Notes under the pieces: model-generated
Told to the model about the DNA's origin: nothing
Seen by the model: the letters and a program-made list of their open reading frames with translations, nothing else
The model's database searches: none
Translations under genes and position numbers: made by a program
Assembly (NCBI RefSeq): GCF_008704935.1
Contig: NZ_CP023692.1
Location: forward strand, 7,603,501-7,667,500
Direction of reading: 5' to 3'
Source of the DNA: Streptomyces vinaceus
GTDB lineage: Bacteria > Actinomycetota > Actinomycetes > Streptomycetales > Streptomycetaceae
DNA length: 64,000 nucleotides
Shown here: one piece after another, positions 46,921 to 58,714 of the stretch
How positions within the stretch are numbered: position 1 is the first letter of the stretch
Layout: every line of letters starts with the position of its first letter

Positions 46921-48189
46921 TCAGATGTTGTGTGGCTGAGGGCTGGCGACCGGGTGGGATCCGGTCTTGAGGGGTGTGGGCGGGCGCGCGTGGAGCAGGC
47001 CGATGGTGAGGGCCGCCACCGCGGATACGGCGCCGCCCAGCGCCAGGGCGGTCCGCGGGCCCGCGCTCTGGGCGGTCCATCCGACCAGGGGGGCCAACAG
47101 GGGTGTAGTGCCCAGGGTGGCGAGGAGGTAGAGGCTCATGATCCGTCCGCGTATGCCCTCGCCTACGCCGAGCTGGAGGCGGGCCTTGGCGGCGGTGAGG
47201 AAGACCAGCAGCGCCGCTCCCGTCGGGACGAGCAGGACGAGGAAGGACCCCGGTCCGGGCATCAGGGCGCAAGCGGTCTCCAGCGTCCCGAAGGCGAGGG
47301 CGGCGGCTGCCAGTCGACGGCCGCTCACCCGCGGGCGGCGGGCCGCCAGGAGCGAGCCGATGACGGACCCGGCGGCCAGGGCGGAGTTGCCCAGCCCGAA
47401 CATGGCGGCCGGGGCGTGGTAGACACGGGTGATCATCAGCGCGGTGGTGATCTGGAAGTTCATGCCGAACGCGGCGACGACCGCGACGAGGACCAGCGTG
47501 AGCGCGAGGTCGCGGCGGTCGCGGACGTAGCGCAGGCCGGCCCGCACCTGCCCCTTGGCGCGGGGAACCGGCGGGGCCGGGCGGCCTGCCCGGGGGTCCA
47601 TGCGCAGCAGGCAGACGATCACGGTCAGGTAGGAGAGGGTGTTGGCGAGGAAGGCGGGGCCGGGTCCGAAGAGGACGATGAGGGGTCCGGCGAGTGCGGG
47701 GCCCGCCATGCGCGCGAGGTTGAGGACGGCGCTGTTGAAGGCGAGGGCGCTGACGAGCTGGCTGGGTGCGACGGATTCTCCGATGAAGGCCTGCAGGGCG
47801 GGCTTCTCGACCACCATGGTGAACCCGAGGGCGAGGGCCAGGACGCAGAGGGCGTCCAGGCGGGCCGCGCCGGTGGCGACGAGCAGTGCGGGAATCAGTG
47901 CGAGGACGGCCATCACCGTCTGGGAAGCGAGCAGGATCCCCCGGGTGGAGTGCCGGTCCACCAAGACGCCGCCGTAGGGCCCGAATACCAGGAGGGGCAG
48001 GAACTGCAACGCCGTGGTGATGCCCAGGACCGTACCGTTGCCGTGTGAGAGGTCCAGGGCCAGCCAGTCCTGGGCCACCTTCTGTATCCACGTACCCGTG
48101 TTGGACGCCGTCTGGCCGAGGGCGAAGAGCCGGAAATTCGGGCTTCTCAGCAGCGGCCACCGCTGCGGTGTGCGGGAAAGCGGGTGCAG
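46921..48189 (-). CDS. MFS transporter, apparently starting at CTG
   Basis: An MFS exporter of about 422 residues with 12 predicted helices. ATG- or GTG-based calling would start at 48078 (AQDWLALD), but the frame is clearly coding upstream: RSPNFRLFALGQTASNTGTW precedes it and is the conserved first helix. The only candidate start before the in-frame TAG of the upstream gene is CTG at 48187-48189, six bases after GAGGAGGAG. The MFS motif A (GGVLVDRHSTR) follows helix 2. It lies 18 bp downstream of the ATP-grasp gene in the same operon and is probably the exporter of that pathway's product. Confidence 0.85.
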   Translation of the reverse strand: MHPLSRTPQRWPLLRSPNFRLFALGQTASNTGTWIQKVAQDWLALDLSHGNGTVLGITTALQFLPLLVFGPYGGVLVDRHSTRGILLASQTVMAVLALIPALLVATGAARLDALCVLALALGFTMVVEKPALQAFIGESVAPSQLVSALAFNSAVLNLARMAGPALAGPLIVLFGPGPAFLANTLSYLTVIVCLLRMDPRAGRPAPPVPRAKGQVRAGLRYVRDRRDLALTLVLVAVVAAFGMNFQITTALMITRVYHAPAAMFGLGNSALAAGSVIGSLLAARRPRVSGRRLAAAALAFGTLETACALMPGPGSFLVLLVPTGAALLVFLTAAKARLQLGVGEGIRGRIMSLYLLATLGTTPLLAPLVGWTAQSAGPRTALALGGAVSAVAALTIGLLHARPPTPLKTGSHPVASPQPHNI

Positions 48190-48207
48190 GTCGGACTCCT
48201 CCTCGGC

Positions 48208-49143
48208 CTATCGGCCCGATGGTTCGGGCCCCTCTTCGGCAGCCGTCAGACGGGTCCGGCAGGCGGCCGCGAGCGCGGCGGTGATGCCTTTCATCTCGGG
48301 TTGCCAGCCGGCGTTGGCGTTCACCTCGCAGACCGTGAACCCGCCGTCCTGAGCGAACAGCAGGTCCACCCCGGCCACCCCAAGCCCCATCACGGCGGCA
48401 GCCCGGACCGCGAGGTCCTCACCTTGCGGATAACGGCCCGTGCAGGGCGTGAGAGTCGCGCCCAGAGCCAGATTGGAACGGAACTCCCCTCCACTGGCGG
48501 AACGCACGACCGCACCGGCCGCACGTCCGTCGACGACCACCACGCGCAGGTCACGGCCGTGGGAGTATCCGACGTACTCCTGGAACAGACAGCCTGTATC
48601 CGGTTCGAGCCCGCCATGAACGACCCGGAGTGCTTCAACGTCCGGCGCCAAAAACACCTGTTCGCCGCGGTGCCCCCGGACCGCCTTCACCACACACGGA
48701 TGCGGTAACCCGGCCCCGATCACCGCATCCAGGGAGCCACCCGCACTCATGCACGTTTCGGGCACCGTGAGTCCCGCCGACGCGAGCCGCTGCACTTGCC
48801 AAAACTTGTCCAGACAGGCCAGCACCGCATCCGCCGGGTTCAGCAGGACGCTGCCCATCGCCTCCAGATGCCGCAATAGCGTGATCTCCCGGCTCACGCC
48901 TGTCCCCGGCGTCCACACCCTCCCGTACACCACTTTCGGAGCCTGCACCGCACACCCGTCCAGACCATGCAACGCCAGGCCGCCCCGCCCGGCCCCCATC
49001 AACAGCTCCCCGCTGCCCACGACAGCGAACCGGTCGCCGAACTCGCCTTCCAGAGCCTGCGTGATCAGCCCGGTCACCGGCCGCTGCGACAGACCGGCAC
49101 CCAGCACCAGCCACACATCGGCGCCGCGACTCGCCAGGTTCAT
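48208..49143 (-). CDS. RimK-like ATP-grasp ligase
   Basis: A 311-residue ATP-grasp enzyme. Visible elements are the Lys/Gly loop (CVVKAVRGHRGEQVFL), the QEYV adenine-binding strand, GRDLRVVVVDGRAAGAV, and the metal-binding end GVDLLFAQDG with CEVNANAGW. RimK-type ligases attach amino acids or form peptide/ester crosslinks. The start may be ATG 49143 or the in-frame GTG 49224. Its stop is followed by the GAGGAGGAG site of an MFS gene, so this is a ligase/exporter operon. No precursor peptide was identified upstream. Confidence 0.85.
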   Translation of the reverse strand: MNLASRGADVWLVLGAGLSQRPVTGLITQALEGEFGDRFAVVGSGELLMGAGRGGLALHGLDGCAVQAPKVVYGRVWTPGTGVSREITLLRHLEAMGSVLLNPADAVLACLDKFWQVQRLASAGLTVPETCMSAGGSLDAVIGAGLPHPCVVKAVRGHRGEQVFLAPDVEALRVVHGGLEPDTGCLFQEYVGYSHGRDLRVVVVDGRAAGAVVRSASGGEFRSNLALGATLTPCTGRYPQGEDLAVRAAAVMGLGVAGVDLLFAQDGGFTVCEVNANAGWQPEMKGITAALAAACRTRLTAAEEGPEPSGR

Positions 49144-49727
49144 ACGGCCCCGCCACTGCCAGCCACGGACACCCGGTCCTCTCCTGTTCACCGGGCCGCC
49201 GGACCCGTCCGCCACCCCCACCAACCACTGCCCATATCGGGCAAGGGCAGATATAACGCCATTGGACTCACCCAGATGGCGCAGAACCGGAGCCGAGTGC
49301 AGTTCTCAACGACGCTCGTCGCACTGTGTGGTGAGGTGCGGGAGACACGGCTTGCACATCAACTCACTGGACGGACAGGGCCCGGTCAACGACGCCCAAG
49401 CCCTGCCCCAGCTCATCGACGCCGTCCGCTCGGCGGCTAACGCATCACCGACCTGCGCACCTTTTCACCCCCGCCCCTGCCCCCCCCGCCTCGGCAACGC
49501 GTGACTGGTGCTGTCCGCCGTACGCAGCGCGCTCACGGCGCGGCATAGCAGCGGGTGGCCTTCGCCGTTGCGGTGGGGGAGTGCCTGTGGGCCGCTCGCT
49601 CGGTCGGGCGGCCCACAGGAGTAGGAGCGGGTCGGCCCTCCTGGTGCGGGTGCGGGCTTTGCTGGGCAGGGAATGCTGTCCGCTACCGCCAAAGCGGTCG
49701 GCTGGCGGGGTGCGGACTCCAGGGTGG
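49144..49727. other. Region between ATP-grasp and S8 genes, no supported gene
   Basis: Contains AT-rich GATATAACGCCATTGG near 49250, a likely promoter area for the minus-strand ATP-grasp operon. A plus-strand frame (AQALPQLIDAVRSAANAS, ending 49504) and a 36-residue minus-strand frame with four Cys (about 49310-49420) lack good support. Confidence 0.35.
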
Positions 49728-50974
49728 TTAGAGGCCGGCGGTGTACAGCAGGCAGTTCGTGGTGGCCTTGGTGACGTTGGTGATGGCGTCCTTGGTGCAC
49801 TCGAATGTGAGCCATTCGGCGATGTCGGTGGAGGTGGCGTTGGGGTTGGCGGCCTTGTAGAGGGCGGCGACGCCGGCGGTGTGGGCGGCGGCCATCTGGG
49901 TGCTGCTGCGGACGGCGCTGCCGCCGGCCGCGGCGGCGGCGGTGATGCCTTCGCCGGGGGCGTAGATGCCCTGGCAGGTGCCGGCGTTGGTGAACGAGGC
50001 TTCTTCGTCGAACTTGTTGGTGGCCGAGACGGTCATGACGTTGTCGGCGCTGGCCGGGGAGTAGCCGCAGGCGTCCGCTTCCTGGTTTCCGGCGGCGACG
50101 ATGGGAAGGACGTTGAGGTCGGAGGCGACGGTGGCGGCGGTGTCGACGAGGGCGTTCTTGGCGAGGACGGCGGAGACGTCCATGATGGCGGGCTTGTTCT
50201 GGAGGCGGGCCTGGGCCGCGACGTAGTCCATGCCGGCGATGAGGCCGGCTGCGGTGCCGGTGCCGTTGCAGCCCAGAACGCGGACGGCGACGAGCTTGGC
50301 CTGGCGGGCCACGCCGTAGGTGTTGCCGCCGATGGTGGAGGCCACGGCGGTGCCCTGGCCGTAGCAGTCGGCCTGCTGCTGCCCGTCGACGACGGCGTTG
50401 AAGCCGCGGGTGGCACGCCCGCCGAACTCTGGCAGGCCGATGTTGATGCCGGAGTCGACGACGTAGACGGTCACGTTGGACGTGTTCTGGGTGACGTTGA
50501 ACTGCCCGTCCCGACGCCGAGCACGTTGTCCCAGCCGGTCTTCTGGTCGATGCGGTCCAGGCCCCAGGAGAGGGCCGGCAGCGCGGCCTTGGCACTCGCC
50601 GCGGGCTGCGCCTTGGCAGGTGCCTTGGCGGGGTCGGCGGTGGTGACGCTGTCCTGGGTGACGGCGGTCACGCCGGGGGTGTTGCGGATCTTGGTGACCT
50701 GGGCCGGGGTGAGCTTTGCGGCGAAGCCGTTGAGGACGGTGCTGTACGTGTGCAGGGTGGCGACGCCCGGGAGGGCCTGCTTCGCCACGCTGGCGGGGGT
50801 GACGCCCTTGTCGAGGGTGACGATGTACTGGCCGGCGACCGCATTGGCGCTGGCGTTGAGCGGTGCGGGCTCCGCCCGCATGGTGGTGCGGGCCTCGGCG
50901 GATGCGAGCGGGCCGGCGGTGAGAGCGGCGGCCACGACGAGCGCGGCGGAGCTGTAACGCAAGGTCGAACGCAT
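49728..50974 (-). CDS. S8-family (subtilase) homologue with lost catalytic residues, frameshifted
   Basis: Secreted subtilase-like protein of about 415 residues. From ATG 50974 (AAGGAG, six-base spacer): signal peptide, I9-type prodomain (GQYIVTLDKGVTPASVAKQA), then a one-base break near 50500 and the protease domain to 49728. Asp is kept in VVDSGI. At the His site GHGTHVA is replaced by GQGTAVA (about 50343-50360), and at the Ser site GTSMAxPH is replaced by STQMAAAH (about 49887-49909). The oxyanion Asn in AAGNQEADAC remains. Two of three catalytic residues are missing, so it is a predicted pseudoprotease. Confidence 0.85.
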
Positions 50975-51090
50975 TTCGACTCCTTCAAGGGCGCGTACAT
51001 GAACAGGAGCAGGCCACGGCGGCGCGCCACGTGACGGGCTGCCGGGCACGGCCGCGCGGGCACGCTGGGGTGCCGGGGCGCCGGTCGGGG

Positions 51091-52019: not shown

Positions 52020-52850
52020 GTCGAGGCCGCCCGGGGCGGCCCGTGCCTGTGCGCGACGCGCATGGCTTGTTCCTTGAGGGGGAGGAGAGCGGAATACCTA
52101 TGGGCGTGCGATACGCAGGCGCGAGGCATGCCCTCATCAGACACTGCAGTCGCGGAATTAATCCTTCCGTTTGATGGTCGGCGGGGCCATCCCCGGAACA
52201 GGTGGTCGCTGGATCGAGCCTCTGACGCCTTTGCCTGACGGCCGGGCCCTTGCCCCCTCAAAGCAGCCCCCAAGTCGCTGACGCTCGCTCCGTCTCCCTT
52301 CATGTCGCAGATACGCACTGCCCTCGAAGTCGAAGCCGCGCCGCGTACCCGCGGCGGAGTCCGTAGCCGTGGACAAGCCGCTTGCGGCTCATGGGGGCCT
52401 CTCGGTGGTGCGGTTGACCGTATCGCCGACGGCAGGCATCAGCCTCGGGATCAGCAGCCGCGCTCACCGCCGCACGCACTGGCGCGCCTTCCACCCCGCC
52501 CGCGGCGACCGCGCCTGCCCCTGTGGCCCTGGCAACCGGTCCGTCTGCAGCCATCACTGAGGCAGCCCGGTTCCCACGCCACGCAGTCCTTGACCGTCAC
52601 ACCGACCCAGCAACTCCGGAAAGCCGGCCGATAGCATGTCCGCCCTCCTCAGCCCGAGCGTGGCAAACCGGGCAGCCCCGCCACTCGGCGGGGCCCAATT
52701 CAGCACAGTGGCCTGTAATCAGGCTCCGCATTCCGCCCTGTGCCAGGCCAATTCCCGCTGGTCGGCGGAGTGCACATCGGGCCGCGCCCCGAAAGGATGG
52801 ACTCGTTCAGCCACACCCGTCCATACGCATACATCACCCGTATCCAAGGA
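52020..52850. other. 830-bp region without a supported gene
   Basis: Frames such as 52369-52560 (ending CPCGPGNRSVC) and 52523-53065 plus lack support. The part just upstream of 52850 (CATACGCATACATCACCCGTATCC) probably contains the promoter of the secreted-protein gene. Confidence 0.35.
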
Positions 52851-52856
52851 ATGCAC

Positions 52857-53201
52857 ATGAAGATCAAGTCCCTGTCCCTGCTCACAGTTGCCGTGTTCGG
52901 CGTGATGGCCCTGGGAGCGGCTCCCTCGCAAGCGGCCGGCGGAACATACTCCTGCAAGGGCTACGCCGACATGGGCAAGACGGGCAGTCCGACGGCGTAC
53001 TCGACCTGCAAGGCCGACGGCAACGGAAAGAGGGTGGCCCAGCACCGTGTGGTCCTCAAGTGTGACCAGGTGCAAGGCGCCCGTGAATCGGTGGTGACCT
53101 ACACTCGCTACGGCAACTGGGCAGGCCCGAATGAGCGGTCAAACGTCGCCTGCGCGAAGACCAAGAACTTCCTTCGCGGCGTGAGCGTCGAGACCAAGTA
53201 G
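52857..53201 (+). CDS. Small secreted protein with two Cys pairs
   Basis: A 114-residue precursor from ATG 52857, seven bases after AAGGA (ATG 52851 is less well placed). The Sec signal peptide (MKIKSLSLLTVAVFGVMALG) is cleaved after SQA. The mature 87-residue basic domain has four Cys (TYSCKGY, STCKAD, LKCDQ, VACAKT), likely two disulfides, with Tyr/Lys-rich strands. Lower GC than the surroundings. Not recognised. Confidence 0.75.
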   Translation: MKIKSLSLLTVAVFGVMALGAAPSQAAGGTYSCKGYADMGKTGSPTAYSTCKADGNGKRVAQHRVVLKCDQVQGARESVVTYTRYGNWAGPNERSNVACAKTKNFLRGVSVETK

Positions 53202-53566
53202 TCTGAACCCCGGCCGTCGTGCCCGTGCCCCCACTCTGCCTGAGCACGTGCAGGGCACCGCGATAGAGCCCGGGTGTCGCCGTACTCGCTATGCCGCTCG
53301 GAACGAGCTCACCCGCTCCGTGCCCGACAGCGTGAACCGCTGGCTTGAGTCCGTCCGGCCGCCGACTGCTGGGCAGCCGGCGCGGCTGTCAGTGCCCCTC
53401 GCTGATACCGCACACCAGGCCCTGGCGAGCACAGATCCGGGGACGCCAAGGGTTACAAGCAGCGGGAAGCAGCCACGCCGGTTCTCTTCGTGTCCGGCAT
53501 ACGCCCTGTCGTGCCGGCTCCGGCGGCTATACCGTTAGCGGGTTCTCGACCCGTGGGAGGTCTGCT
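53202..53566. other. Region upstream of the polyproline peptide gene
   Basis: No gene supported; the frame 53248-53538 has no motifs. It must contain the promoter of the peptide/methyltransferase unit, ending in GGGAGG at 53555-53560. Confidence 0.35.
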
Positions 53567-53704
53567 GTGTCAGGGATCGTGGAGGGCAAGCACCGGTCAC
53601 CGATCGGTGACGATGGGCATCAGCCCAACCGGCCTGTCCCACCTCCTCCGCCCCCGCCTCCACCACCTCCCCCGCCGCCCGGCAACCAGGGTCCGACGGG
53701 GTAG
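53567..53704 (+). CDS. 45-residue polyproline peptide, candidate modified-peptide precursor
   Basis: Starts at GTG 53567 with an ideal GGGAGG site and six-base spacer. The product begins MSGIVEGKHRSPIGDDGHQP, continues NRPV, then an uninterrupted run of 14 Pro and the tail GNQGPTG, ending in TAG at 53702-53704. A PCMT-like methyltransferase frame begins at or before this stop. The central GDDG contains an Asp-Gly step, the site most prone to succinimide/isoaspartate formation and the natural target of PCMT-type enzymes. Interpretation as a ribosomal peptide precursor is inference; it could also be a short leader or linker peptide. Confidence 0.65.
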   Translation: MSGIVEGKHRSPIGDDGHQPNRPVPPPPPPPPPPPPPPGNQGPTG

Positions 53705-54887
53705 CCGTGCCGCCACCCCGGATGCCCCCGCTACCGGCGCGCTCCTCGACGGGCTGCTCGGCCAGGTCGCCGAGCAGCTCGGCCGACCCCTGCCCGCGCG
53801 CCTGCGGAAGGCCTTCCACCGTGTGCCGCGCCACCGGTTCCTGCCCGACCGGATCTGGCTGCGCGACGGATCGGGCGGCTACCGGTCCGTGGACCGGGCG
53901 ACGGAGCCCGACGGCTGGCTGGCTGCGGCCTACACCGACCAACCGCTGGTCACCCGCTTCACCGACGGTCTGCCGTCCTCGTCGGCGTCCATGCCGTCGA
54001 TGGTCGCCCGCATGCTCCTCCTGGCCGGCCTCACCGAACCCACCGGCCAAGGCCAAGCCCCACTCCGGGTGCTGGAGCTGGGCGCCGGGACCGGCTTCAA
54101 CGCGGGACTGCTGTGCATCCTGGCCGGGGATGAGCAGGTCACCACGGTCGATCTCGACCCCACCCTCGCCGCTGGCGCGCAGGAGAACCTGAAGAGGGTC
54201 GGCCGGGCGCCGACGGTCGTGGCCGCGGACGGCGCCGGCGGATGGCCGCCGGGCGCCCCCTACGACGTCGTCCTGGCCACGTTCTCCGTCGACCACATCC
54301 CGCCCGAATGGCTGGCCGGGATCCGGCCGGCAGGCGGCCGCATCGTGACCCCCTGGACCTCGCCCTGGTGCAGCTACGGCACCCTCGAACTCACAGCCAC
54401 GGATACCGGCCCCGCCCACGGACGCTTCCACTCCTTCGCCTCCTTCATGCCGATGGCACGCTCCCACGCCGAGTCCCGCCCGTCGACGACCGCGCCCGCG
54501 GGCGACGACAGCGCAGCCGCCTCGTCGACGGGGCTCTCGCCATGGGCGGTCGCGGGCGGCGACCTCGACGCCGAGTTCCACATCGGCCTCACCGTCCCCG
54601 ACGCCTCGTACGCCTGGGACACCAGCGGCGACCACGCCCACACCCGCCTCCAGATCCAAGACGCGGCCACCGGCTCCTGGGCGACGGTCGACTACGACGG
54701 CCGCACCGCGGCCGACTTCACCGTGGCCCAAGCAGGACCCCGACAGCTGTGGGATGAGGTCACCGCCGCCTACTGGCGTTGGGAGGAGCTGGGCCGGCCG
54801 AGCGTCGACAGGTACGGCCTGACCATGACAACGGGTACGACCGTCGTGTGGGCGGGCTCTCCCGCGAGTCCCGTCGCCGAACGCTGA
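53613..54887 (+). CDS. PCMT-like (protein-L-isoaspartate) methyltransferase family protein
   Basis: About 390-425 residues. It has an N-terminal helical region with FHRVPRHRFLPDRIWLRDGS, the substrate loop DGLPSSSASMPSMVARML and SAM-binding motif I LELGAGTGFNAGLL, then VTTVDLDP and the PYDVVLATFSVDHIPPEWL strand of PCMT-fold enzymes. A C-terminal extension of about 180 residues follows. The start is uncertain: no good start lies after the peptide stop in this frame. ATG 53613 or GTG 53607 are in frame but overlap the peptide gene, while GTG 53707 would need a one-base correction. Family members methylate Asp/isoAsp, and some install aspartimide in ribosomal peptides. Confidence 0.8.
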   Translation: MGISPTGLSHLLRPRLHHLPRRPATRVRRGSRAATPDAPATGALLDGLLGQVAEQLGRPLPARLRKAFHRVPRHRFLPDRIWLRDGSGGYRSVDRATEPDGWLAAAYTDQPLVTRFTDGLPSSSASMPSMVARMLLLAGLTEPTGQGQAPLRVLELGAGTGFNAGLLCILAGDEQVTTVDLDPTLAAGAQENLKRVGRAPTVVAADGAGGWPPGAPYDVVLATFSVDHIPPEWLAGIRPAGGRIVTPWTSPWCSYGTLELTATDTGPAHGRFHSFASFMPMARSHAESRPSTTAPAGDDSAAASSTGLSPWAVAGGDLDAEFHIGLTVPDASYAWDTSGDHAHTRLQIQDAATGSWATVDYDGRTAADFTVAQAGPRQLWDEVTAAYWRWEELGRPSVDRYGLTMTTGTTVVWAGSPASPVAER

Positions 54888-55065
54888 TCTTCGAACTGAC
54901 TTCGACGCCGAAGCACGCAGGCGTTCTCACATTTCGGCGGCATCACTTCCGGCGGGGAGGGCGTTCCTGCCACAGGACAGGCGATGCCGTATCTGCAACT
55001 CACCGTATGCGGATCGCCGTGCCCGTGGAATGATCGCCGCACCAGTCTGGCTTTGGGGGTGTGTG

Positions 55066-56289
55066 ATGGCAGACGGGGGCGAACAGTACGAGGCGTCAGC
55101 GTCGGCTCTCGGTTATCTGTTCCAGTTCGCCAAAGCGCTGCACATGTGTATCGAACAGTGGATGAGCGCTGGCGCGGACTGGAGCGTCGCGGTGGAGGCC
55201 GCTGACGACATCGAGCAGCATGTGGGCTCCGTGACGGATCTTGTGCAACTCAAACAGCGCGCCGAAGGCGTGCGTTTGACGAACTTGTCGAAGGACCTGT
55301 GGAAGACACTTCGGATCTGGGCGGAGGGCGCTGCGGCGGGGCGCCTCGATCTCGACCACACGAATCTGTATCTGCTCACCACGGCCGAGCTCCCCAGGGG
55401 CAGCGTCGGTTTCCTCCTGCAGCATCGCGACAGCGGCCACCGTGACGAAGACACGGCCCTGAAGCTGCTCTGCACTGCCGCCACGACCTCGGACAGCAAG
55501 AGCAAGGCCATGAAGGAGTCGTTCGCCGCCTTCCTGGGGCTGGCCACCCGCGAGGTACCACTCCAGCGGGCGTTGCTCTCGCGGATCGAGGTCATCGGCG
55601 GTGCGGACGACATCGACGTTGTCCGTTCCTCCATGCGGGGCCTTGCTGGGTTGGCTGCCGGCCGCGACGCAGCTGAGTCCTTCCTCCAGAGACTGGAGGG
55701 CTGGTTCTACGACCGGGTGATCGAGCAGATGCGTACGCCCGGCGGCAACCCGGTCACCGGTGTCGAGTTCGACGAAGTTTTCACGGGACTCCAGCGGCAG
55801 TTCAGCTACGACAACCTTCCGATCGACCCCGACATCACTGGCATGACTGGCAACGTCAACGAGGAGACCGACAAGATCTTCGTCAGGCAGCTTGGTTTGA
55901 TCGGAGTCGGATCGGAACGCATCGGCTACGCGGTGAGGGACTACGTCCGGGCCTTCGCGCAGCGGTCTCGGTGGCTGAACGAGAATCTGCTGCGCCCGGG
56001 CGAGATCGGCGAATACGAGCGCCGGCTCGTGGAGGAGTGGCAGTCCCGCTTCGCAGAAATGGCGGAAGAGCTGGGATCCGAGGCGACCGAGGAACAGAAG
56101 AAGAAGGAGGCAAGGACGATCTACCGGTGGGTCGACCGGGAAGCCCGCACCCAGATCCGCAACGGATGCCACGAGGTGTTCGTACCCAAGGGCTCGTACC
56201 ACATGCTGGCCGACGAGTGCAGGGTCGGCTGGCACCCGGACTTCGCGGCCCGCCTCATGCAGCTCCTTGAACCGGTGGAGGCTCGCTGA
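55066..56289 (+). CDS. ABC-3C system effector/CTD protein with Mrr/DUF4297-like N-terminus
   Basis: A 407-residue first gene of a three-component ABC (ABC-3C) system. N-terminal region (residues 5-90): GYLFQFAKAL, then SVAVEAADDIEQHV and LVQLKQRAEG, the E/D-DI-QxK arrangement of restriction-endonuclease-fold DUF4297/Mrr-like nucleases. The helical C-terminal half with IYRWVDREARTQI and WHPDFAARL fits the ABC-3C CTD. Start ATG 55066, one codon after GTG. Stop and next start share TGATG. Predicted DNA-degrading effector of a conflict system; the nuclease assignment is from motif only. Confidence 0.8.
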   Translation: MADGGEQYEASASALGYLFQFAKALHMCIEQWMSAGADWSVAVEAADDIEQHVGSVTDLVQLKQRAEGVRLTNLSKDLWKTLRIWAEGAAAGRLDLDHTNLYLLTTAELPRGSVGFLLQHRDSGHRDEDTALKLLCTAATTSDSKSKAMKESFAAFLGLATREVPLQRALLSRIEVIGGADDIDVVRSSMRGLAGLAAGRDAAESFLQRLEGWFYDRVIEQMRTPGGNPVTGVEFDEVFTGLQRQFSYDNLPIDPDITGMTGNVNEETDKIFVRQLGLIGVGSERIGYAVRDYVRAFAQRSRWLNENLLRPGEIGEYERRLVEEWQSRFAEMAEELGSEATEEQKKKEARTIYRWVDREARTQIRNGCHEVFVPKGSYHMLADECRVGWHPDFAARLMQLLEPVEAR

Positions 56290-56768
56290 TGGACCTGAGC
56301 CGCGAAGAGCGAGTCCTGTACAACCCTGCCTTTACCGGGCTGCTGTGCACCCGCGCCGTGCAGGGCCACGCGATGCAGTACGAAGGCGCTGCATGCCCCC
56401 TGCCCGTGGCCGTCGTGGCCGCGGTGATGGCCCTTCAGCCCTCGATCAGATCTGTGCTTCCCGGCACGATGAAGACCGGTCTCATGAAGTGGCTCGACAC
56501 GAACGAGGCCGTGCGCATCGCCATGAGCCGCAACGCCGCACCGATCGCTGGGGTGGTCCGTCCCGGACTGCTCTTCGCCCTCCAGGTCGGTGCCCTTCGG
56601 GCCCAAGGGAACGGGCTCAGTTTGGCGGCCGGGCCGACGACCAAGACCGTCAAGGGCGCCACCCAGCAGACCATCGCGATCCAGAATGCCGCCCTGCTCC
56701 TCGGGCGTTGGCTGCCCAGCACCGGCAGCCTGAGTACCGTCCTGACGCTTCTCGGAGTCAAACCGTGA
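56289..56768 (+). CDS. ABC-3C system middle component
   Basis: A 159-residue helical protein between the effector and ATPase genes, overlapping both (TGATG at 56287-56291 and GTGA at 56765-56768). It starts MDLSREERVLYNPAFTGLLC and has the small Gly/Ala-rich helices (PLPVAVVAAVMALQPSIR, ATQQTIAIQNAALLLGRWLP) that characterise the three-component ABC system middle component. It presumably bridges ATPase and effector; no enzymatic motif. Confidence 0.82.
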   Translation: MDLSREERVLYNPAFTGLLCTRAVQGHAMQYEGAACPLPVAVVAAVMALQPSIRSVLPGTMKTGLMKWLDTNEAVRIAMSRNAAPIAGVVRPGLLFALQVGALRAQGNGLSLAAGPTTKTVKGATQQTIAIQNAALLLGRWLPSTGSLSTVLTLLGVKP

Positions 56769-58714
56769 CGTTCCAGATCCAAGCGGTCACCATCTACGGC
56801 AAGCAGCCCGGTCAGATGCGTACCGTCCCCTTCCGGACAGGCAGCCTCAACATCGTTACGGGCGACTCCCGGCGCGGGAAAAGCGCACTGCTGACGATCA
56901 TCGACTACTGCCTGGCCAGCACCGACTACCCCGTCAAGGCGGGCAAGGTCCGCGACTACGTCAGCGCCTACGCCGTCACCCTCATCAGAGGCCGCCAGCA
57001 GCTCTTCGTCGCCCGCCGCGCCCCTGAGGGCAAGGCCGCGGTCAGCACCGTGCTGTGTGTCCTTACACAGGCAACCGGTACCCCGGCCCCGCGCCTGGAG
57101 GACCTCCACTTCTCCACCCCGCAGGACACAGCCAAAGACATCCTCAGCAACTTCTGTGGCATCGACAGCACCGTCCGTGTTCCTGCCGTCGGCAAGAACA
57201 CCCTCATAGCGCCGTCCGTCCGCCACGCCCTCTTCTTCTGCTTTCAGGCCCAAAACGAGGTCGCCAACCCCGACGTCCTCTTCCACTCGCAGGGTGAGGA
57301 CTGGAAACCGAACACTATCCGGGGAGTTATTCCCTACTTCCTTGGCGCGGTCGACCGCGAGCAGGCACTGCTCCAGAACCGGCTCCGCAACCTGCGCCGG
57401 GACCTGGCCGACAACGAAGCGATGCTCGCGACTTCCACGGACGTCGCCCCGGCCAGCGGCCAGGCCCAGGCTCTTCTCGTCGAAGCAATCGAAGTTGGCC
57501 TCGTACCTCCTCAGGCCGGCCCCCACACCGCAGACGAGCTCCTCCGGCACCTCCGCAACGCCATGATCCACAACGCCCCAGGCGACAGCCTCGCCGACGA
57601 GGATCCACTCTCCGCCCTCCACACACGCCGGACGGAGCTGCGTCGGCTCTTCTCGCAGACCCGAGCCAGGATCGCCGACTTGAAGACAGACCTGGCGGAG
57701 AACAGCGACTTCAACGACCAGGCCATCGAGCAGCGTGCTCGCCTGGCATCTCTAGGCCTCTTGAACCGGGATGCAAACGCCGCCGCAGACCAAGCCCGCT
57801 GCCCGGTCTGCGATGGCCATGTCCCGTCGGCCAACGAGACCGTCGCCGGCCTCATGCGGGACTTGTCTCACCTTGACGGTGATCTGCAAGTGATCGGAAG
57901 CGACACCCCCGCGATCCGACGCCTGATCGTCGACGGCGAAGGCCGCCTACAGGCACTCCGCTCCGAGCTTGCCCGCAACCAGGAGGAGATCAACGAGCTC
58001 ACTACCGCGCTGCGCACGATTCACCGCGAGCCAGACGATCTGCGACGGGCCGCCATCGTCCAGGGCCGCATCAGTCTCTTCCTCGACACAGCTGCCCAGC
58101 ACGCAGCGGCGCCCCGGGTTCAGGACCGCCGTGAGGCGCTGCGCGAGCAGATCGCTGAACTTGAGGACCAGCTCAGCGGGAGTACGCAGGAAGAGCGACT
58201 CACCAGCTTCCTGTCCTTGATCAATCAGGAGATCAAGAAGAAGGCGAAGGCACTCGACCTGGATTTCTCCGGTTCGCCCATCCGCCTCGACACCAGCCGA
58301 CTCACCGTGGTCGCGGACACCATCGACGGCCCCGTGCAGCTCAAGAGCATGGGCAGTGCCGAGAACCACCTGGGCTATCACATCTCCACCCTCCTCAGCC
58401 TCCACGAGTGGTTCGCCAAGCACCAAGGACCCGTGCCTCGGGTACTGATTCTCGACCAGCCCTCACAGGTCTACTTCCCGGCCGAGGCGACCGGCGACGA
58501 GGAGCTCCAGACCAACGACCGCCTGCACCTGCTGAACGTCTTCGAAGTCCTCCACCACACTCTTCAGCAGCTCGACGGCGAGTTGCAGATCATCGTCATG
58601 GAACATGCCGACCTCGCCGACCCCATGTTCAGCCAGCATGTCGTCGAGCGCTGGCGCTATGGCAACGACACGGCCTTGGTGCCGTCCTCATGGATGGAGC
58701 CCGAGGAAAGCTGA
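56765..58714 (+). CDS. DUF3732 SMC/Rad50-like ABC ATPase (ABC-3C)
   Basis: A 649-residue ATPase from GTG 56765. Walker A is GDSRRGKSAL near residue 35; two coiled-coil arms flank a zinc-hook-like CPVCDGHVPS at about 347. The second half has the signature-loop region SMGSAENHLGYH, Walker B RVLILDQPSQVYFP and a C-terminal switch His (IIVMEHADLAD). This layout is DUF3732, the ATPase of ABC-3C systems predicted by comparative genomics to sense invading nucleic acid and license the effector. All key motifs are intact. Confidence 0.9.
   Translation: MTFQIQAVTIYGKQPGQMRTVPFRTGSLNIVTGDSRRGKSALLTIIDYCLASTDYPVKAGKVRDYVSAYAVTLIRGRQQLFVARRAPEGKAAVSTVLCVLTQATGTPAPRLEDLHFSTPQDTAKDILSNFCGIDSTVRVPAVGKNTLIAPSVRHALFFCFQAQNEVANPDVLFHSQGEDWKPNTIRGVIPYFLGAVDREQALLQNRLRNLRRDLADNEAMLATSTDVAPASGQAQALLVEAIEVGLVPPQAGPHTADELLRHLRNAMIHNAPGDSLADEDPLSALHTRRTELRRLFSQTRARIADLKTDLAENSDFNDQAIEQRARLASLGLLNRDANAAADQARCPVCDGHVPSANETVAGLMRDLSHLDGDLQVIGSDTPAIRRLIVDGEGRLQALRSELARNQEEINELTTALRTIHREPDDLRRAAIVQGRISLFLDTAAQHAAAPRVQDRREALREQIAELEDQLSGSTQEERLTSFLSLINQEIKKKAKALDLDFSGSPIRLDTSRLTVVADTIDGPVQLKSMGSAENHLGYHISTLLSLHEWFAKHQGPVPRVLILDQPSQVYFPAEATGDEELQTNDRLHLLNVFEVLHHTLQQLDGELQIIVMEHADLADPMFSQHVVERWRYGNDTALVPSSWMEPEES

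What the first reader, a model, noticed from the sequence alone, without database searches (positions are those of the whole stretch)
53567..54887. Polyproline peptide gene with an ideal ribosome-binding site in front of a PCMT-like methyltransferase: candidate modified-peptide system
A 45-residue ORF (14 consecutive Pro, central GDDG) has GGGAGG at six-base spacing and abuts or overlaps a PCMT-fold methyltransferase with an unusual 180-residue C-terminal extension. Asp-Gly is the preferred site of isoaspartate/aspartimide chemistry, and PCMT-like enzymes are known tailoring enzymes in some ribosomal peptides (imiditides, certain graspetides and lanthipeptides). A polyproline substrate for such an enzyme would be new to my knowledge. 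Sequence shows the ORF, ribosome-binding site and methyltransferase motifs; the precursor role is inference.
Basis: partly seen in the sequence, partly recalled or inferred. Interest (0 to 1): 0.85.

Follow-up and report, generated by a model that had tools for sequence, protein, structure and literature searches.

The report
Proline-rich peptide with its own methyltransferase
A soil bacterium carries a tiny two-gene unit, a proline-rich peptide and the enzyme predicted to rebuild one of its aspartates; it belongs to a recently described class of modified peptides, and in this genome the enzyme gene appears to be out of frame.

Summary
The peptide/methyltransferase pair is real. The 45-residue ORF (GTG 53567-53704) lies ahead of a PCMT-fold methyltransferase frame (to 54887). 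Relatives carry the same pair: 26 peptides picked as this group share x-D-G-x-x-P-x-[RK]-P-[IVL]-P. The core evolves under purifying selection, peptide and enzyme divergence track each other, and the two-gene cassette turns up alone in unrelated surroundings, plasmids included. The enzyme matches the full RiPP methyltransferase profile TIGR04188 (below cut-off) and has the WXXXGXP motif of RiPP-associated aspartyl methyltransferases. Best reading: a type I pamtide (imiditide) locus, a class described in 2023, whose enzyme should methylate the Asp of Asp-Gly, giving aspartimide/isoaspartate. The chemistry is inferred, not shown. The proline run is not the conserved part (2-14 residues, 16 on one plasmid). 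The C-terminal extension is usual for this clade. The window's own copy looks damaged: the stretch after the peptide stop is one base shorter than in relatives, so alone of 16 loci it has no enzyme start by the peptide stop. Its peptide alone of 26 lacks charged residues after the motif. New member of a known class; the long-proline subgroup is not named in the text I read.

The parts
53507..53535 (+). candidate promoter: TGTCGT (53507-53512), 17 nt, TACCGT (53530-53535)
   Evidence: TACCGTT invariant in 6 of 6 aligned cassettes (window, L058, L059, L061, L168, L212); its role as a promoter is inferred
53555..53560 (+). Shine-Dalgarno GGGAGG, 6 nt before the GTG start
   Evidence: sequence; a similar site by a loose pattern stands before the peptide in relatives (the scripts favour starts that have one)
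53567..53704 (+). pamtide-type precursor peptide, 45 aa, core GKHRSPIGDDGHQPNRPVP + P14 run
   Evidence: omega of the 24-codon core 0-0.2
53612..53617 (+). codons of Asp16-Gly17, the predicted modification site (Asp16 invariant in 26 of 26 peptides, position 15 varies)
   Evidence: modification inferred from the class
53639..53680 (+). 14-proline run (spacer of variable length in relatives)
53707..53732 (+). start region of the methyltransferase; one nucleotide shorter than in L058 and L062, so GTG 53707 is out of frame with the enzyme body
53736..54887 (+). RiPP-associated aspartyl O-methyltransferase (PAMT) body, 383 aa: PIMT fold plus C-terminal domain (about 54504-54884) with WEELGRP (WXXXGXP)
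53462..54906 (+). extent of the transferable cassette (88% identical to S. flavotricini L058; no other match between the window and the 13 kb of L058)

Best explanation
The locus is a type I pamtide (imiditide) cassette. The small gene encodes a linear precursor peptide. The second gene, probably translationally coupled in relatives, encodes a PAMT (RiPP-associated PIMT homologue). Most likely the enzyme's C-terminal domain binds the peptide's charged ends and the enzyme methylates the side chain of the Asp in the invariant Asp-Gly (Asp16). The methyl ester then closes spontaneously to an aspartimide and partly opens to isoaspartate. The proline-rich stretch acts as a stiff, length-tolerant spacer between the modified site and the charged tail. 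The cassette spreads horizontally and decays repeatedly. The window's copy is probably in decay or carries an assembly indel: its enzyme frame has lost its start and its peptide has no charged tail. Shown here: the pair, its conservation, the enzyme family and fold of the catalytic part, the frame lesion. Inferred: the chemistry, the site, the spacer role, coupling, non-function of this copy.
For: Peptide profile A2 hit 21 places in 20 of 392 genus genomes; 15 of 21 lie directly ahead of an enzyme hit on the same strand. 26 of 29 enzyme loci have a recognisable short peptide ahead (25; L123/G410). Motif in 26 of 26 peptides picked as this group, Asp16-Gly17 invariant, position 15 D/S/G/H. Core omega 0-0.2 (10 pairs) against 0.25-0.45 for the enzyme (12 pairs). 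Enzyme and peptide identities correlate (r 0.71, 0 of 5000 permutations as high, 16 loci). In the enzyme tree 16 of the 17 rows with this motif, together with peptide-less L163, form one supported branch (98/96), and the 6 of a second peptide type another (100/98). 15 of 16 loci start the enzyme -4 to +8 nt from the peptide stop. TIGR04188 matches nearly end to end, C-terminal domain included (profile 14-359 of 363). Model pLDDT 90.8; best Foldseek hit T. maritima PIMT 1dl5, E 1.2e-18, aligned over model 3-378. C-terminal domain alone: pLDDT 93.2, element order beta-alpha-beta4-alpha, the order that PMC10787088 gives for PAMTs. WXXXGXP present. No neighbour family is shared by three or more non-syntenic cassettes except one regulator-like protein; no full ATP-grasp hit beside them in 20 genomes.
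Against: No biochemistry was done. TIGR04188 scores below its curated cut-off (267 of 380). The C-terminal domain searched alone gave no Foldseek match at E 0.001 or better, and 1dl5 is not among the 50 rows shown by either program, so its kinship to the T. maritima domain is not shown by fold. The window enzyme has no start codon by the peptide stop and its peptide no charged residue after the motif, though published work finds charged termini important (PMC13001092). The window's enzyme body shows no excess of amino-acid changes (9 against 11 in L058 with outgroup L059; 10/8, 6/11, 10/12 with three others), so a long-dead gene is unlikely and an assembly error is possible. Some enzymes lack the peptide (L121, L127, L137, L062).
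Confidence: 0.84

Rival explanations
1. The small ORF is a regulatory leader peptide: ribosomes stall on the proline run (EF-P dependent) and so control translation of the methyltransferase, which acts on something else.
For: Enzyme start lies within -4 to +8 nt of the peptide stop in 15 of 16 loci; long proline runs stall ribosomes (general knowledge, recalled).
Against: The conserved part is the KHRSP-GDDG core ahead of the prolines, under purifying selection; proline runs shrink to 2-3 in many relatives with the core intact; the enzyme family is known to modify such peptides (PMC10787088, PMC13001092).
Confidence: 0.07
2. Peptide and enzyme are one protein made by +1 frameshifting in the proline run (in the window, frame +1 from the peptide is open into the enzyme).
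For: In the window the enzyme frame is open from 53490 through 54887, overlapping the whole peptide gene.
Against: In relatives the enzyme lies in frame +2 (11 loci), +1 (2) or 0 (2) relative to the peptide, my arithmetic on the start distances, and each of the 15 has its own start codon by the peptide stop; the open fusion frame is thus particular to the window.
Confidence: 0.03
3. A graspetide cluster of the TIGR04188 kind: the methyltransferase is secondary and an ATP-grasp enzyme makes the main modification (a RimK-type ATP-grasp lies at 48208-49224, minus strand).
For: NCBIfam names TIGR04188 for ATP-grasp systems; an ATP-grasp gene lies about 4.3 kb away; in G181 a 75-residue TIGR04187 fragment lies about 4.5 kb from the cassette.
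Against: The window gene is RimK-type (TIGR00768, 174 bits; TIGR04187 only 32 of 350), is on the other strand beyond a subtilase, and is outside the shared cassette; no full ATP-grasp hit near the cassette in any of 20 genomes.
Confidence: 0.03
4. The window copy is fully functional and the one-nucleotide difference is an assembly error (compatible with the main reading of the family).
For: The enzyme body is intact for 383 codons with omega 0.25 against L058 and no excess change on the window branch.
Against: A crude frame-break count in ten 20-kb stretches of this genome (3 per 100 kb) is no higher than in two control genomes (3 and 6), though that test found 0 in the window and so missed the subtilase break; that subtilase is also frame-split; the peptide lacks the charged tail.
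Confidence: 0.4

Closest known systems
Type I pamtides / imiditides (SpaA-SpaM of Streptomyces sparsogenes; NmaA-NmaM of Nonomuraea maritima)
   Same: Two-gene locus, short linear Gly/Pro/Asp-containing precursor, PAMT with C-terminal domain and WXXXGXP motif, conserved Asp, charged tail in relatives, frequent in Streptomyces (PMC10787088, PMC13001092).
   Different: The precursor core KHRSPxGDDGxQPxRPxP with runs of up to 14 prolines (16 in the plasmid peptide) is not described in the text I read; the sequences of SpaA and NmaA stand in figures, supplements or papers not held, so a direct comparison was not possible. The window copy looks damaged.
Group 13 graspetides (fuscimiditide, amycolimiditide, SsfABM; methyltransferase model TIGR04188)
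   Same: Related methyltransferase; same C-terminal motif (PMC13001092).
   Different: Need an ATP-grasp enzyme and a cyclised substrate; no ATP-grasp is in this cassette or full-length beside its relatives.
Type II pamtides / cysimiditides (FcaA-FcaM)
   Same: Peptide plus PAMT as the only modifying enzyme.
   Different: Precursor with CxxCxGxG zinc motif; the 26 peptides have no cysteine.
FxLD lanthipeptide-system methyltransferase (TIGR04364)
   Same: Same wider methyltransferase family.
   Different: 109 bits against a cut-off of 320; no Cys in the peptide.
Canonical PIMT repair enzymes (E. coli Pcm, 3LBF)
   Same: Same catalytic fold.
   Different: Lack the C-terminal domain, repair isoAsp in proteins (PMC13001092, PMC10787088), no paired peptide.

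Membership tests
Type I pamtide (imiditide) | precursor peptide gene next to a PAMT gene | tested here: met
Type I pamtide (imiditide) | no primary modification enzyme of another RiPP class in the cluster | tested here: inconclusive
   supports it: shared cassette holds only the two genes; no full TIGR04187 hit beside the cassette in 20 genomes (a 75-residue fragment about 4.5 kb away in G181); no neighbour family at three or more of 20 cassettes other than syntenic ones and one regulator-like protein. Other RiPP enzyme models were not scanned over the neighbours.
Type I pamtide (imiditide) | PAMT with a C-terminal extension of over 100 aa | tested here: met
   about 127 residues after the catalytic part, TIGR04188 matched to position 359 of 363, element order as reported for PAMTs (against PMC10787088)
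Type I pamtide (imiditide) | fold of that extension like the T. maritima PIMT domain | tested here: inconclusive
   whole model: 1dl5 first in Foldseek and aligned over 3-378, rmsd 5.9. Domain alone: no Foldseek match at E 0.001 or better, 1dl5 not among the rows shown
Type I pamtide (imiditide) | WXXXGXP motif near the C terminus | tested here: met
   WEELGRP; P invariant, W and G at 90% or more of 33 sequences
Type I pamtide (imiditide) | precursor of about 45 aa rich in Gly, Pro, Asp with a conserved Asp near Pro/Gly | tested here: met
   45 aa, 40% Pro; Asp16-Gly17 invariant in 26 of 26; relatives 30-48 aa. Only 2 of 45 residues are Asp
Type I pamtide (imiditide) | charged residues at the precursor's C-terminal end (reported for most members, not a strict definition) | tested here: not met
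   window peptide has 0 charged residues after the motif; the other 25 of 26 have 1-11
Type I pamtide (imiditide) | Asp to methyl ester, aspartimide, isoaspartate | not testable with these tools
   needs co-expression and mass spectrometry
Group 13 graspetide (TIGR04186-04188) | ATP-grasp ligase TIGR04187 in the cluster | tested here: not met
   window hit 32 bits against a cut-off of 350, RimK-type, about 4.3 kb away on the other strand; no full hit beside relatives
Group 13 graspetide (TIGR04186-04188) | methyltransferase above the TIGR04188 cut-off | tested here: not met
   267-268 bits, cut-off 380
Type II pamtide (cysimiditide) | two CxxCxGxG motifs in the precursor | tested here: not met
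   no Cys in the 26 peptides
FxLD lanthipeptide system | methyltransferase above the TIGR04364 cut-off | tested here: not met
   109 bits, cut-off 320

The most novel reading that the evidence does not exclude
A distinct, mobile pamtide subgroup in which an enzyme-made aspartimide (an electrophile) sits at the base of a polyproline-II rod that can grow to 14-16 residues. The rod would work as a molecular ruler, both for docking the charged tail on the enzyme and for presenting the reactive group to a target.
Probability: 0.15. Interest if true: 0.6.

Novelty: new member of a known kind. Interest (0 to 1): 0.36.

Why it matters
What aspartimide-bearing RiPPs are for is an open question (PMC13001092). 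This subgroup offers a very small natural substrate with an invariant Asp-Gly, a spacer whose length nature has varied from 2 to 16 prolines, and many intact orthologues. That makes substrate recognition (site, spacer, tail) directly testable. It also shows such a cassette in unrelated surroundings, linear plasmids included, and repeatedly decayed, as one would expect of a dispensable trait under fluctuating selection (inference).

Tried and rejected
Leader-peptide regulation, programmed frameshifting, graspetide and FxLD membership were considered and disfavoured (see rivals and membership test). Sequencing error as the cause of the frame lesion could not be settled. The frame-break count (6 in 200 kb of this genome, 3 and 6 in 100 kb each of two others, 5 in 134 kb of relatives) does not mark the assembly as error-prone, but it found 0 in the window and so missed the subtilase break that one search shows; it is weak.

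Weak peptide hits: of 17 loci read, 8 have the enzyme beside them (L168, L170, L174, L175, L178, L180, L184, L185; L174 is the G413 locus again), 1 (L176) belongs to the class where the peptide's 5' part runs into another gene, and 8 have neither (L171, L172, L173, L177, L179, L181, L182, L183). In one search, 4 of 21 places (G303, G221, G282, G190:C138) match the core but have no enzyme (the first three confirmed in 15-19 kb), and 2 (G302, G270, E about 5e-4) look like chance.

Rows left out: one search used 16 of 21 loci in hand with an enzyme of this clade; not used were L061 (enzyme in two frames; same contig as L154), L062, L162 and L163 (no peptide core), L167 (enzyme with internal deletion). 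The 26 peptides were picked as members of the group; peptides of the second type and those with PDG after the prolines were not included, the plasmid peptides came later, and some start codons were chosen by eye; 10 of 33 rows carry no label; L008, which has the motif, lies apart from the other 16.

Literature: searches. Read: abstract and outline, section 5 parts 1 and 2 of 3, sections 10 and 11 and found passages of PMC10787088; abstract and outline, sections 10 and 11 and found passages of PMC13001092. 'Polyproline' occurs 0 times in either main text. Supplementary data, where the published precursor lists stand, could not be read, so this subgroup may already be in them. The imiditide paper (doi 10.1021/jacs.3c03991, number recalled) is not held.

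Full report
What is there. The 45-residue peptide ORF at 53567-53704 is real, with a GTG start, GGGAGG six bases before it, 14 consecutive prolines (53639-53680) and a central GDDG. The downstream frame to 54887 encodes a PCMT-fold methyltransferase: Pfam PF01135 68.7 bits, NCBIfam TIGR04188 267 bits against a cut-off of 380, TIGR04364 109 against 320. The window ends 6 kb short of the end of a 7.67-Mb single contig of the genus Streptomyces, judged from the named relatives.

The pair is conserved. The five closest named enzyme relatives are 64-88% identical in their best segments. Four of them carry the same peptide directly upstream: VEGKHRSPIGDDGHQPNRPVP11SNPSPKK in S. flavotricini (88%), and P12, P6 and P7 forms in L059, L060 and L061. 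The fifth, L062, has no peptide and an enzyme broken into three frames. In six aligned peptides the blocks KHRSP, GDDG, QP and RPVP are invariant.

Census in the genus. A profile of six peptides hit 21 places in 20 of 392 genomes. At 15 of the 21 an enzyme hit follows on the same strand. Four match the core without an enzyme; in three of them that I could read, and in L176, the peptide's 5' part runs into what reads like the start of a carbamoyltransferase gene in another frame, and the fourth (L101) shows that start too (my reading, no family search). Two at E about 5e-4 look like chance. Enzyme relatives at E 1e-45 or better occur in 112 of 392 genomes. Of 29 enzyme loci read (L121-L149), 26 have a recognisable short peptide, counting L123, which the script missed and searches show. 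Three have none: L121; L127, where the core is missing and a proline-rich end remains; and L137.

Beyond the genus. Searches of 394 genomes of the class and 297 of the family matched 6 and 12 genomes at E 0.001. Of 17 loci read, 8 had the enzyme beside them, one repeating a known locus. Among them are L170 in another family and L178, L180, L184 and L185 in another genus of the same family. Across 26 peptides picked as this group the motif x-D-G-x-x-P-x-[RK]-P-[IVL]-P is present in all. The Asp-Gly is invariant, while the residue before it is D, S, G or H. That singles out Asp16 of the window peptide as the likely target (inference).

Selection and co-evolution. Nei-Gojobori omega for the 24-codon peptide core is 0-0.2 over ten pairs; for the enzyme it is 0.25-0.45 over twelve pairs. 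Peptide and enzyme identities correlate over 16 loci (r 0.71, 0 of 5000 permutations as high). In a tree of 33 enzymes 16 of the 17 with this motif, together with peptide-less L163, form one branch (98/96); L008 lies apart. The 6 with a second peptide type (MGWGTGKGGSGGDG...) form another branch (100/98). In 15 of 16 loci an enzyme start codon lies -4 to +8 nt from the peptide stop, which suggests translational coupling.

A two-gene cassette in varied surroundings. Between the window and the 13 kb held of S. flavotricini homology covers only 53462-54906. Over 20 cassettes neighbour families recur among syntenic loci (three sets). Otherwise one regulator-like protein is shared by three loci (L151, L152, L159) and two families by two loci each (window and L059; L151 and L155). 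A copy lies on a linear plasmid of Streptomyces sp. 3211 (97% of the query, 81% identity), with peptide ...GKHRSPIGDDGHQPNRPVP8LPPTNPSTKK, and others on plasmids of S. nigrescens and NBC_00158. The NBC_00158 peptide has a run of 16 prolines before a final Lys. No peptide gene is listed for the 3211 and NBC_00158 copies, but that gene table is incomplete; the S. nigrescens record shows no features there.

The enzyme. The model (pLDDT 90.8, 33-sequence alignment) has T. maritima PIMT 1dl5 as best Foldseek match, E 1.2e-18. VIA-align places 1dl5 at Z 27.2, rmsd 5.9, over 292 residues, model 3-378, tied with E. coli PIMT at 27.4, which covers 1-244. PMC10787088 uses 1dl5 as the reference for the C-terminal domain shared by RiPP-associated PAMTs and calls the likeness weak. 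Searched alone, the C-terminal domain (127 residues, pLDDT 93.2) gave no Foldseek match at E 0.001 or better, and 1dl5 is not among the rows shown. So that kinship is not shown by fold here. [quoted passage not shown] TIGR04188, a RiPP methyltransferase model, matches almost end to end (14-359 of 363). The WXXXGXP motif named in PMC13001092 is present as WEELGRP, its P invariant and its W and G at 90% or more in 33 sequences.

What it is. PMC10787088 defines type I pamtides as two-gene loci of a roughly 45-residue precursor rich in Gly, Pro and Asp and a PAMT, and counts 1539 non-redundant PAMTs in pamtide loci of both types. PMC13001092 equates type I with imiditides and reports recognition through charged residues. 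The window locus fits, so the expected chemistry is Asp methylation, aspartimide, then isoaspartate. No chemistry was tested here.

The proline run. Its longest stretch is 14 in the window, 2-12 in the other 25 peptides, and 16 in the plasmid peptide. The core is kept whatever the run length. A stiff spacer between the Asp-Gly site and the tail is my inference. 'Polyproline' does not occur in the main text of the two papers, and the searches listed no paper on such a system. The published precursor lists are in supplements I could not read.

The window copy looks damaged. From the GTG two bases after the peptide stop to the conserved GCC the window has 20 nt where L058 and L062 have 21 and L212 has 24 (counted), so GTG 53707 is out of frame with the enzyme. 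The window is the only one of 16 loci without an enzyme start by the stop; its in-frame starts are 53490, 53511, 53553, 53607, 53613 and 53823. Its peptide is the only one of 26 with no charged residue after the motif. Of the other 20 loci in hand, 4 are damaged: L061 (enzyme in two frames) and L062 (three frames, no peptide), L167 (internal deletion of the enzyme), L162 (peptide core lost; same locus as L127); L163 has an enzyme in one frame but no peptide. Against long-standing death: the window branch has no clear excess of amino-acid changes over L058 (9 and 11 with outgroup L059; 10 and 8, 6 and 11, 10 and 12 with three others). A subtilase 3 kb away is also frame-split, while five of five homologues have both its domains in one frame. 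A crude frame-break count does not single out this assembly, but it missed that subtilase. Recent mutation and assembly error both remain open.

Verdict. It is a member of a class described in 2023, with a long-proline subgroup that deserves biochemical use, best through intact relatives.

Noticed in passing
window 55030-58714 (+): Lamassu-like defence genes beside the cassette: LmuA (PADLOC 195 bits; Pfam CTD7 of ABC-3C systems) and LmuB (387 bits; Pfam DUF3732).
   Followed up: partly
window 49728-51049 (-): Subtilase gene whose I9 propeptide and S8 domain lie in different frames; five of five homologues have both in one frame.
   Followed up: yes
window 46921-49224 (-): RimK-type ATP-grasp ligase (TIGR00768, 174 bits) followed by an MFS-like transporter; possibly a separate peptide or amino-acid ligase unit.
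   Followed up: partly
L100 (G303), L103 (G282), L119 (G190:C138), L176 (G1000), probably L101 (G221): The 5' part of the peptide gene, core and start of the proline run, runs into what reads like the start of a carbamoyltransferase gene in another frame, with no methyltransferase. In L103 the core reads GDQG. A recombination scar or a new fusion.
   Followed up: partly
L134-L136, L139, L140, L142-L149: Sister enzymes carry a second peptide type, MGWGTGKGGSGGDGKHSGGKDPGTSKPSPD...KHGK, in which the Asp-Gly is not invariant (NG, SG, GG forms), so its modified residue may be another Asp.
   Followed up: partly
L016 (G033), L036 and L050 (G058), L048 (G028): Peptides with the proline run ahead of a PDG, for example MGKHQGPPAPIQPPPPPPPPSPDGSGPPGDGGHRK, ahead of related methyltransferases: order of prolines and DG reversed.
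   Followed up: no
window about 62.0-63.3 kb and L059 7.3-8.5 kb: The only other shared neighbour of the window and a relative: a 457-residue protein next to the L059 cassette has a homologue 7 kb downstream of the window's.
   Followed up: no
window 52740-53201 (+): Small protein with a signal-peptide-like stretch (my reading) and no Pfam or NCBIfam match at E 1, just upstream of the cassette.
   Followed up: no
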